32,017 bases of DNA, taken from NCBI GenBank assembly GCA_018004935.1, contig JAGNBF010000023.1, forward strand, positions 45,669-77,685. The letters run 5' to 3'. The first letter of the stretch is position 1; every line of letters starts with the position of its first letter. The position numbers and the translations under genes were made by a program. The notes below the pieces were generated by a model, which was not told where the DNA came from, did not search any database, and was given only the letters and a program-made list of their open reading frames with translations. Origin of the DNA: Chloroflexota bacterium. GTDB lineage: Bacteria > Chloroflexota > Anaerolineae > Promineifilales > Promineifilaceae. Of the stretch, positions 801 to 26,955 are shown in pieces.

Positions 801-890
801 AGCCTGAGCTTGTCGAAGGCAACACCGGGCTTCGACAAGCTCAGCCCCCGAGGGCATGTGGTGTAGCCTGAGCTTGCCGAAGACAACACC
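801..890 (+). repeat. CTGAGCTTGTCGAAG inverted-repeat element, copy 1
   Basis: CTGAGCTTGTCGAAG at 804-818 pairs perfectly over 15 bp with CTTCGACAAGCTCAG at 830-844 across an 11-nt loop. A degenerate half copy follows at about 862-889. The same core recurs at 8191-8271, 19000-19080 and partially at 21730-21765. It lies between the ends of the exporter gene region and pdxT and could act as a terminator-like structure, though it has no T-tract. Similar CTTCGACAAGCTCAG palindromes are widespread in bacterial intergenic DNA (recalled, not checked). Confidence 0.8.
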
Positions 891-7209: not shown

Positions 7210-7274
7210 AGATAGGATAGTGGCAACAGGCATAATCTGAGGTTTTTTCGCCCTGCCGCTTTATTGCCGTGGCT

Positions 7275-7820
7275 ACCCCCACCCCTAACCCCGCCCCCAG
7301 GGGCGGGGAATTTTTCTCGGCACGGTTTGGGGGCATCTGCCCCCAAACCGTGCCGGTGGGTTTCTTCCCTTCCCTCTGGGATCGCCGGGGGATGGGTCTT
7401 CCGCCTAAACCGACTCAAACTGTTGCCGCAAACAAAATGTCACTTTATGACAGGCCACACCCTCGGTTTGTCGCCAGAAACCCCCACCCCTAACCCCGCC
7501 CCCAGGGCGGGGAATTTTTCTCGGCACGGTTTGGGGGCAGACGCCCCCAAACTGTGCCGGTGGGTTTCTTCCCTTCCCTCTGGGATCGCCGGGGGATGGG
7601 TCTTCCGCCTAAACCGACTCAAACTGTTGCCGCAAACAAAATGTCACCTTATGACAGGCCACACCCTCGGTTTGTCGCCAGAAACCCCCACCCCTAACCC
7701 CACCCCAGGGGTAAGGAACTTTCCCCGGCGCGGTTTTTCGGGGCGAAGGCCCCGAAAAACCGCGCCGCCAGGGTTCCCCCTTCCCCTCGGGAAGGGGGCC
7801 AGGGGGATGGGTCTTCCGTT
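7275..7820 (+). repeat. Tandem array of three variable-hairpin palindromic repeats (204-bp period)
   Basis: The first two units are near-identical and exactly 204 bp apart; the third is diverged. Each unit reads: a C-rich block (CCCCACCCCTAACCCC...CAGGGGCGGGG), a long hairpin, then GGGTTTCTTCCCTTCCC-type sequence ending GGGGGATGGGTCTTCCG. Between units 1/2 and 2/3 lies a further shared spacer (AACCGACTCAAACTGTTGCC to GGTTTGTCGCCAGAAA). Hairpins: unit 1 at 7319-7354 (16-bp stem, ATCT loop), unit 2 at 7523-7558 (same stem with one mismatch, AGAC loop), unit 3 at 7727-7766 (18-bp perfect stem GGCGCGGTTTTTCGGGGC, GAAG loop). The array fills the gap between the metallopeptidase and the YtxH-like gene. 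Confidence 0.95.
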
Positions 7821-8190: not shown

Positions 8191-8271
8191 TAACGACTAA
8201 GGCTCTCGAGGGCTGAGCTTGTCGAAGCCTCTTGTTGCCTTCGACAAACTCAGGCAACGGCTTAGCCGTTA
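8191..8271 (+). repeat. CTGAGCTTGTCGAAG inverted-repeat element, copy 2
   Basis: Inner arms 8213-8227 and 8239-8253 pair over 15 bp with one mismatch. Outer arms TAACGACTAAGGC (8191-8203) and GCTTAGCCGTTA (8260-8271) also pair, so the whole 81 bp can fold into one long hairpin. The rest of the gap from 8040 to 8340 shows nothing else recognisable. Confidence 0.8.
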
Positions 8272-9538: not shown

Positions 9539-9667
9539 CTCAATTTACGACAGGCTTAGGTAAAGCTGTACGAGCCTGTCGTCACAGTTCTATAGGTTGT
9601 TTAGTAAGCGTTCAGTTATCCCGCCCGGGGGTTTTTGTCGTTTAAAAAATTAATCGGGTAATGAGTT

Positions 9668-9806
9668 GATTCGCCCACCCCCCCTGCGATTTCCGGTGGG
9701 AAGAGGGAAACACCAGGCGTGCTGTTATCGAGCGCGGCCGCGCTCGATAACCGGCACAGGAGAAAGTTCCCCGCCCCTGGGGGCAGGGTTAGGGGTGGGG
9801 GAAACC
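9668..9806 (-). repeat. Inverted copy of the variable-hairpin repeat with a NotI-type palindrome
   Basis: Read on the minus strand, it has the C-rich block CCCCACCCCTAACCCTGCCC, the CAGGGGCGGGGAA stretch, a hairpin, then a diverged GGGTTTCCC-type tail. The hairpin at 9724-9751 is a perfect 28-nt palindrome with no loop (arm GTTATCGAGCGCGG), centred on GCGGCCGC. The arm shares no sequence with the hairpins of the array at 7.3-7.8 kb, although the flanks are clearly the same family. Confidence 0.85.
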
Positions 9807-9903
9807 CTATTACCTGACTATTTTTTAAACAACAATTACGGCCAGGCGGGTCTGGTGGATGAATTTATATGACTGAGTCCACTGAAAAAAGGTCAAAACA
9901 GTT

Positions 9904-17857: not shown

Positions 17858-18021
17858 AATGGTCAATAGCTCATTTGTCGGCTCTTTGGGAATCCAGGAG
17901 GTTGACATCCGATGTACGGGCTGGCCTTGTGCCTGCCCCGTGTGGGGCAACCACAAGGCCAGCCCGTACCCCACGAAATCCTGAAGACCTATTTGTCTTT
18001 GACAATTGGCTATTGACCATT
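17858..18021. repeat. Nested palindromic element (GGGCTGGCCTTGTG family), copy 1
   Basis: The core arms GTACGGGCTGGCCTTGTG (17914-17931) and CACAAGGCCAGCCCGTAC (17952-17969) pair perfectly over 18 bp, and GCCCC-GTGT-GGGGC pairs inside. Outer arms AATGGTCAATAG (17858-17869) and CTATTGACCATT (18010-18021) also pair. The edge GGCTCTTTGGGAAT (about 17880-17893) matches the ends of copies at 24126-24234 and 24993-25097. It starts 9 bp after the pheT stop and may end that transcript. Translation of the element gives a false N-terminal extension to the next gene. Confidence 0.85.
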
Positions 18022-18999: not shown

Positions 19000-19080
19000 G
19001 TAACTATTAACCCTCTCGAGGGCTGAGCTTGTCGAAGCCAATTTGCCTTCGACAAGCTCAGGCAACAGGCTTAGTAGTTG
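19000..19080 (+). repeat. CTGAGCTTGTCGAAG inverted-repeat element, copy 3
   Basis: Perfect 15-bp inner arms at 19023-19037 and 19047-19061. Weak outer pairing exists between TAACTATTAA (19001) and TTAGTAGTTG (19071). It lies between the Rpn-family gene and the terminator at 19098. Confidence 0.8.
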
Positions 19081-21554: not shown

Positions 21555-21655
21555 ACCAGGAGAACCCACTCGGCGGGCAAAATCGGGAGTTTCACCCCCG
21601 ATTTTGCCCGTCTTAAAAAAACTCCCCGCCCCTGGGGGTTGGGGGTGGGGGAACT
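21555..21655 (-). repeat. Inverted copy of the variable-hairpin repeat
   Basis: On the minus strand: CCCCACCCCCAACCCCCAGG, GGCGGGGAG, then a hairpin, then GGGTTCTCC. The hairpin arms are CGGGCAAAATCGGG (21574-21587) and CCCGATTTTGCCCG (21597-21610), a 14-bp perfect stem unrelated in sequence to the hairpins of the other copies. Confidence 0.8.
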
Positions 21656-24387: not shown

Positions 24388-24596
24388 CAATTCTCAATTT
24401 AGCCAACGGTTAAACCCGTTGAACTTCAGGCGCACGCTCGAAAAATGGCCCAAACCGTAGAACAGCCTTTCAGGCTGTTCGCCCTCTCGTGAAAACACAC
24501 TGTATAGAGAGCGCACAGCCTGGAAAGGCTGTGCTACCCCAGTTGACGGCCGGGCGGCCTCACCATTTTTAGACGTTCAGGCCAAATTGAGAATTG
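24388..24596. mobile_element. TIR-bounded non-autonomous element (AGCAATTCTC family)
   Basis: The terminal inverted repeats CAATTCTCAATTTAGCC (24388-24404) and GGCCAAATTGAGAATTG (24580-24596) match at 16 of 17 positions. Inside are two strong hairpins, AACAGCCT/AGGCTGTT and GCACAGCCT/AGGCTGTGC, and no ORF. No clear target duplication is seen. An inverted relative is at 26693-26955. Confidence 0.75.
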
Positions 24597-26692: not shown

Positions 26693-26955
26693 AGCAATTC
26701 TCATTTTGACCGATAAACGTTCCGTAATCCGCCCGGCGGTTAACTGGGTAGCACAGCCTTTCCAGGCTGTGCGCTTTCTAAACAGTTTGTTTTCACGATA
26801 GGGCGAACCGCCTGAAAGGCTGTTCTACGGTTTGGGTAATTTTTCGAGCGTGCGCCTAGAATCCAACGGTAGACGTTTCGTTAATCCGCTCGATGGTCAA
26901 CCCGCCGGGCGACCTCTACATTTTTAGCGGCCGCCCGGCCCAATTGAGAATTGCT
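26693..26955. mobile_element. TIR-bounded non-autonomous element (AGCAATTCTC family), inverted copy
   Basis: Ends AGCAATTCTCATTTTGACC (26693-26711) and GGCCCAATTGAGAATTGCT (26937-26955) are terminal inverted repeats with three mismatches. The inside is the reverse complement of the 24388-24596 element (GCACAGCCT/AGGCTGTGC and AGGCTGTT hairpins, TTTTTCGAGCG) plus about 80 bp resembling the 3317-3463 copy. No ORF. Confidence 0.75.

What the first reader, a model, noticed from the sequence alone, without database searches (positions are those of the whole stretch)
7275..7820. Repeat family with conserved flanks but interchangeable hairpin arms
Copies at 7275-7820 (three), 9668-9806 and 21555-21655 share the C-rich CCCCACCCCTAACCCC / CAGGGGCGGGG flank. 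The central perfect hairpins differ completely: GGCACGGTTTGGGGGC (twice), GGCGCGGTTTTTCGGGGC, GTTATCGAGCGCGG and CGGGCAAAATCGGG arms. Both arms change together, so the pairing and not the sequence is kept. Point-mutation drift would not give this; it suggests arm copying (template-switch or inversion-type events) or selection on a cruciform/RNA stem.
Basis: seen in the sequence. Interest (0 to 1): 0.72.

Follow-up and report, generated by a model that had tools for sequence, protein, structure and literature searches.

The report
Self-copying, flipping hairpins in mobile repeats
A bacterial genome carries about 600 copies of a small multi-hairpin DNA module that rides inside several unrelated families of tiny mobile elements, and its central hairpin keeps its two arms matching by copying one arm onto the other, often flipping the loop, which makes it a natural many-copy test bed for how perfect hairpins are made and kept.

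Summary
The five window copies are real and belong to a family with 613 flank matches in the 8.0 Mb draft genome; relatives and viral contigs lack the core. The 'interchangeable' arms are mostly subfamily markers. One core (stem 1, variable stem 2, stem 3) sits inside at least four miniature-element families with unrelated ends and different integration signatures: TA-type; 10-11 bp duplications; ends of a resident IS630-like element; and a 200-bp type that inserts into loops of other hairpins, mostly with an apparent 1-nt duplication. Arms are divergent but mostly alignable. Within subfamilies stem 2 changes in pairs (85 paired double changes, 58 single-sided, about 6 expected), whereas stem 1 of the same copies does not (2 versus 160). 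Loops recur as exact reverse complements (GAAT/ATTC, GTCC/GGAC, CTTC/GAAG, GAA/TTC), even between near-identical copies. Loop inversion rises with arm length genome-wide and also affects an unrelated hairpin. Wobble pairs are not favoured. Best explanation: replicative template switching between arms, plus divergence and recombination of elements. This mechanism is known in yeast and in rRNA; the many-copy bacterial case, the core shared by several element families and the loop-targeting element appear new. A REP/RAYT origin is not supported.

The parts
7216..7246 (+). degenerate left end of an A-type element (TATACTG..GGCATAATCTGACATTTT type)
   Evidence: 7 mismatches over 31 bases; family defined
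7277..7292 (+). copy 1: conserved flank CCCCACCCCTAACCCC
7289..7308 (+). copy 1: stem 1 CCCCGCCCC-CA-GGGGCGGGG
   Evidence: 0 mismatches; folded
7318..7355 (+). copy 1: variable stem 2, 17-bp arms CGGCACGGTTTGGGGGC, loop ATCT
7387..7396 (+). copy 1: closing GGGGGATGGG, partly complementary to the C-rich flank
   Evidence: read directly
7397..7478 (+). A-type tail (..CTGTTGCCGCAAACAAAATGTCACTTTATGACAGG..) between tandem copies 1 and 2
7482..7497 (+). copy 2: conserved flank
7522..7559 (+). copy 2: stem 2, same arms as copy 1 with one mismatch, loop AGAC, i.e. opposite loop orientation to copy 1 (ATCT, cf. GTCT)
7686..7701 (+). copy 3: conserved flank
7726..7767 (+). copy 3: stem 2 of class C, perfect 19-bp arms CGGCGCGGTTTTTCGGGGC, loop GAAG
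7802..7811 (+). copy 3: closing GGGGGATGGG
   Evidence: read directly
9635..9835 (-). complete 201-bp T1-type miniature element (ends TTGTTGTTTAAAAAATAGTCAGG..AAACGACAA) carrying a core; inserted in a CCCGCCYGG..CCRGGCGGG hairpin whose flanks are now imperfect
9724..9751 (-). stem 2 of class G in the T1 element: arms GTTATCGAGCGC around the palindromic loop GGCC
9769..9788 (-). stem 1 of the T1 element (1 mismatch)
21555..21655 (-). class D core with shortened stem 1; remnant of a D/E-type element
21574..21610 (-). stem 2 of the class D copy, arms CGGGCAAAATCGGG..CCCGATTTTGCCCG

Best explanation
The feature is a multi-hairpin core module (C-rich flank, stem 1, long perfect stem 2 with a 3-4 nt loop, stem 3) carried inside several miniature inverted-repeat element families of one genome. 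Stem 2 is kept perfect, and made diverse, mainly by replicative template switching. While copying one arm, the polymerase jumps to the complementary arm (nascent strand folded back, or the opposite template strand at the fork), copies it, and returns. This makes the arms identical (point changes and length changes alike) and, in the interstrand form, flips the loop. Mutation followed by arm copying yields paired changes; repeated, it yields subfamilies with different but always paired arms. Overshoot or foldback beyond the arm creates longer or new arms. Recombination between elements through the shared core sometimes joins the ends of one family to the hairpin of another. Shown: paired change, loop inversion, its rise with arm length, the near-absence of both in the short stem 1, lack of wobble preference, the shared core and the chimeras. 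Inferred: that template switching rather than arm-to-arm recombination is the enzymatic route, and the order of events.
For: (1) Stem 2 against subfamily consensus: 85 paired double changes, 58 single-sided, 2 unpaired doubles; about 6 doubles expected if arms were independent; about 30 distinct compensated variants. Stem 1 of the same copies: 2 paired doubles, 160 singles; odds ratio 117, p = 1e-33. (2) In subfamilies A, B, C, D and E, common loops come as exact reverse complements: GAAT 24/ATTC 13; GGAC 13/GTCC 12; GTCT 19/AGAC 4; CTTC 8/GAAG 7; ATTC 6/GAAT 5; GAA 3/TTC 2. (3) At least 9 flips on the tree of 28 B copies (tree length 1.03 changes per site), no tree signal (shuffled mean 8.9); at least 3 on 16 A copies (shuffled mean 5.7). 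Tandem copies at L034 7340/7467/7595 and L111 7180/7364/7548, and pairs with only a few flank differences, carry opposite loops. (4) Inversion rises with arm length in 2.49 Mb: 10 of 350 copies at 7-9 bp, 3 of 28 at 10-12, 12 of 39 at 13-15, 15 of 59 at 16+ (p = 4e-12 for 7-9 versus >=13). The unrelated hairpin AGACCTGACAGGTTT does it too, so this is a host process and not a property of the core. (5) Arm length changes are often paired (G-runs 5/5 and 6/6, T-runs 2/2 and 3/3). (6) Extended or new arms: 24-bp arms in L147 + 4738; arms built from the 3' flank sequence in L088 - 19101. (7) Mismatches G.T-type 28, A.C-type 25 (p = 0.78): no wobble-tolerant intermediate. (8) The same pattern of arm homogenisation and spacer inversion, with inversions only on arms over 9 bp, is reported in yeast (PMC8604942).
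Against: No event was caught in the act; everything is inferred from divergent copies in one draft genome, of which 31% was read. Copies are related, so raw counts are not independent events. Reciprocal recombination between arms with mismatch repair, or cruciform processing, would leave similar traces. Many one-sided mismatches also persist (58). Stem 1 is shorter and low in complexity, so it is an imperfect control; about 50 of its 160 singles (C.C, G.G) may be frame slips from small indels.
Confidence: 0.72

Rival explanations
1. Arm-to-arm recombination or cruciform resolution (or an invertase acting on long hairpins) flips the loop, and mismatch repair in the heteroduplex makes the arms equal.
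For: Gives loop inversion and arm correction; dependence on arm length fits recombination as well.
Against: Arms of 13-19 bp are short for homologous recombination; paired length changes and arms extended into flanks fit copying better; no dedicated recombinase signal was looked for beyond transposase families.
Confidence: 0.15
2. Selection on an RNA or ssDNA/cruciform hairpin: compensatory mutations restore pairing one by one, as in structured RNAs or REP-like binding sites.
For: Strong predicted fold (z -6.7); intergenic position of the window copies; arms kept paired.
Against: No excess of G.T over A.C mismatches (28:25); loops flip freely; no Rfam match; stem 1 in the same element decays without compensation; unrelated hairpins behave the same.
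Confidence: 0.1
3. No arm evolution at all: the window copies are simply different subfamilies, and new hairpins are swapped in whole by recombination between elements at the conserved flank.
For: Arm class goes with element ends (A, T1, D/E, F) and chimeras exist, e.g. T1 left end with A hairpin and A right end in L061, L073, L161.
Against: Does not explain paired changes and loop flips inside one subfamily with otherwise near-identical sequence.
Confidence: 0.03

Closest known systems
Template-switch mutation between inverted-repeat arms (quasipalindrome correction; spacer inversion in S. cerevisiae, PMC8604942; rRNA and microRNA hairpins, PMC8794818)
   Same: Arms made identical, loop inverted, stems extended; inversion favours arms over 9 bp (PMC8604942).
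   Different: Those studies have few events per locus, and in rRNA arm correction with loop inversion was extremely rare, loops being highly conserved there; here hundreds of copies of one bacterial hairpin show it at high frequency.
Minute inversions at hairpins of chloroplast DNA (papers found)
   Same: Loop of a stem-loop flips back and forth and is homoplasious.
   Different: Organelle single-copy loci; here a dispersed bacterial repeat family (comparison partly from my own knowledge).
Bacterial MITEs (70-300 bp, 15-30 bp terminal inverted repeats, no coding capacity; definition in PMC3733652)
   Same: Size, terminal inverted repeats, no coding capacity needed, target duplications, and for the F type the ends of a resident IS630-like element.
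   Different: One and the same inner core is shared by at least four families with unrelated ends and different integration signatures.
Insertion sequences that target REP palindromes (IS1397, ISPpu9; PMC1525189, PMC8450116) and GTAG/CGTC repeats lying inside palindromes (PMC3733652)
   Same: Insertion into palindromic repeats.
   Different: The T1 type here enters the loops of many unrelated hairpins, judged by structure, mostly with an apparent 1-nt duplication; no transposase with its ends was found.
REP/BIME repeats mobilised by RAYT
   Same: High-copy intergenic palindromes, some in tandem arrays.
   Different: No RAYT with an HUH motif was seen in this genome; terminal inverted repeats and target duplications instead of REP signatures.

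Membership tests
MITE | short non-coding element with terminal inverted repeats | tested here: met
   A 273 bp, D/E 181 bp, T1 about 200 bp modal lengths with inverted ends
MITE | target-site duplication | tested here: met
   D/E: 10-11 bp in 12 of 29; A: TATA ends consistent with TA; T1: 1-nt duplication best in 24 of 34 sites with an uninterrupted copy
MITE | related autonomous element with the same ends | tested here: inconclusive
   F ends resemble the ends of an IS630-like element with a 292-aa open frame (L206); none found for A, D/E, T1 in the families and sequence searched
REP/RAYT | linked Y1 HUH transposase | tested here: not met
   single Y1_Tnp hit, regulator-like fusion without HUH motif on reading
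REP/RAYT | 20-40 bp unit tagged GTAG or CGTC | tested here: not met
   units are 180-273 bp and none of the printed elements carries such a tag as a conserved terminus (definition PMC3733652)
Template-switch-maintained hairpin | arms change together | tested here: met
   85 paired vs 58 single, control 2 vs 160
Template-switch-maintained hairpin | loop inversion, favoured by longer arms | tested here: met
Template-switch-maintained hairpin | dependence on replication and exonuclease functions | not testable with these tools
   needs an experiment
Structured RNA family | match to a curated RNA family or wobble-biased covariation | tested here: not met
   no Rfam match; G.T 28 vs A.C 25
Integron attC site | structure-conserved recombination site near an integron integrase | not tested
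   considered only because attC also keeps structure over sequence; integrase not searched

The most novel reading that the evidence does not exclude
The core is a parasite of mobile elements: one self-repairing multi-hairpin module that has moved into several unrelated miniature-element families, one of which (T1) recognises hairpin loops by structure and inserts there with a single-nucleotide duplication. Nested hairpins are thereby built by repeated loop insertion and kept perfect by template switching.
Probability: 0.35. Interest if true: 0.78.

Novelty: new variant of a known kind. Interest (0 to 1): 0.6.

Why it matters
How compensated changes in hairpins arise, in two steps through selection or in one step through copying, is an old question that is hard to answer in RNA genes because selection hides the process. 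Here hundreds of dispersed copies of one hairpin, with a built-in control stem, let the rates be measured: flips occur at roughly nine times the per-site substitution rate in subfamily B (at least 9 flips over a tree length of 1.03), and loop orientation is mixed at 13 bp of arm and above but rarely inverted below 10 bp. It also shows an inner module shared by several mobile-element families and a miniature element that reads hairpin loops as its target.

Tried and rejected
RAYT link: one degenerate Y1 protein only. RNA family: no Rfam match. Autonomous partner for T1, A and D/E by distant end pairs, DDE_Tnp_1 and IS110-type Transposase_20: none linked (the ends of the two IS110-type hits were not compared). 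Flanks made palindromic after T1 insertion rather than before: rejected, since 34 of 40 sites have an uninterrupted copy elsewhere. Chance that T1 sites look palindromic: 1.1% of random points reach the score, and A and D/E sites give 1 of 65.

Full report
OBSERVATION. The window is contig 134, 45669-77685, of an 8.0 Mb, 229-contig draft. All five copies exist. The flank CCCCACCCCTAACCCC has 613 places at up to one mismatch against 3 for the reversed pattern. I read 2.49 Mb of the genome (31%) and found 339 cores, 223 with a clear central hairpin. In the element's own orientation the core is: C-rich flank; stem 1 CCCCGCCCC-CA-GGGGCGGGG; a spacer AACTTTTCT; stem 2, usually 16-20 bp with a 3-4 nt loop; a C/G stem 3; and GGGGGATGGG. 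Copy 1 folds far better than shuffles (z -6.7).

WHAT THE COPIES ARE. The core lies inside longer elements. Four end types were found. A: TATACTGTCAAAGGGCATAATCTGACATTTT...AAAATGTCACTTTATGACCGTGGTAAGTATA, about 273 bp, TATA ends suggesting TA insertion; a 74-bp copy without the core exists in L080. D/E: AGGGCGATTGCATACTC...GAGTATGCAATCGCCCT, about 181 bp, with 10-11 bp target duplications in 12 of 29. T1: TTGTCGTTTAAAAAATTAATCAGGTAATGG...AACAA, about 200 bp, 116 left ends genome-wide. F: ends like those of a resident IS630-like element with a 292-aa frame (L206). Arm class goes with end type (A hairpins with A ends, B and G with T1, D and E with D/E, F with F), with a few chimeras such as T1 left end plus A hairpin and A right end. 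So the window's 'different arms' are first of all different subfamilies: A, A and C in tandem, G in a T1 element, and D.

T1 TARGETS HAIRPIN LOOPS. Joining T1 flanks gives a palindrome centred on the insertion in 32 of 40 cases, against 1.1% of random points and 1 of 65 A or D/E sites (p = 2e-18). In 34 of 40 the uninterrupted site is present elsewhere, best matched with a 1-nt duplication in 24, for example CAGCCTTT[T1]TCAGGCTG against CAGCCTTTCAGGCTG. Target hairpins belong to several unrelated repeat families. The window copy 9635-9835 sits in such a hairpin, now imperfect.

HOW THE ARMS EVOLVE. Against subfamily consensus, stem 2 shows 85 paired double changes, 58 single-sided and 2 unpaired doubles, with about 6 doubles expected under independence. 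Stem 1 of the same copies shows 2 paired doubles, 8 unpaired doubles and 160 singles. Mismatches in stem 2 are G.T-type 28 and A.C-type 25, so pairing is not maintained through wobble intermediates as RNA selection would predict. Length changes of the arms are often paired too. Loops occur as exact reverse complements in five subfamilies. On trees built without the loop, at least 9 flips are needed for 28 B copies, the same as with shuffled labels, and at least 3 for 16 A copies. Some neighbouring tandem copies differ in loop orientation; in the window copies 1 and 2 read ATCT and AGAC. Across all hairpin families in the sequence read, inverted loops make up 3% of major-plus-inverted copies at 7-9 bp arms, 11% at 10-12, 31% at 13-15 and 25% at 16 or more, including the unrelated AGACCTGACAGGTTT hairpin. 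A few copies carry arms extended into, or rebuilt from, the flanks: L147 + 4738 (24 bp) and L088 - 19101.

MECHANISM. These are the marks of replicative template switching between arms: one arm templates the other, and the interstrand form inverts the loop. The same marks are described in yeast, with spacer inversion only for arms over 9 bp (PMC8604942), and proposed for RNA hairpins, where arm correction with loop inversion was called the strongest possible support but was extremely rare in rRNA (PMC8794818). Arm-to-arm recombination with mismatch repair remains a live rival. Element-to-element recombination through the shared core contributes chimeras. Which enzyme makes the switches, and whether the core has any function, is not shown.

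KNOWN OR NEW. The mechanism is known. What I did not find described in the papers searched (eight searches of one open-access library) is a bacterial repeat family with hundreds of copies showing it at this rate, one core shared by several miniature-element families, and a miniature element entering hairpin loops of many sequences. Exact core matches are absent from 58 relatives and viral contigs.

LIMITS.

Noticed in passing
window 804-844, 830-882, 8213-8253, 19023-19061: Another dispersed hairpin repeat, CTGAGCTTGTCGAAG...CTTCGACAAGCTCAG.
   Followed up: no
window 24457-24537, 26748-26828: Hairpin repeats of the GTAGAACAGCCTTTC / GAAAGGCTGTTCTAC kind; elsewhere in the genome these are common T1 insertion targets.
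   Followed up: partly
window 17914-17969: Repeat GTACGGGCTGGCCTTGTGCCTGCCCC with an inverted partner, seen several times elsewhere in the genome.
   Followed up: no
L170 646-1812: Protein with a response-regulator-like N-terminus and a Y1-transposase-like C-terminus that lacks the HUH motif on reading; possibly a domesticated transposase domain.
   Followed up: partly
L206 889-2056: IS630-like element with TAATACTGGTATAG inverted ends and a 292-aa open frame; its ends match the F-type core elements.
   Followed up: partly
L080 minus strand around 6193: A 74-bp A-type element consisting of little more than its two inverted ends, without the core.
   Followed up: no
genomes G250, G260, G326, G338, G359: Distant members of the phylum hold up to about 64 copies of a similar C-rich flank (CCCCACCCCTAACCCCTCCC); whether they carry flipping hairpins is unknown.
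   Followed up: no
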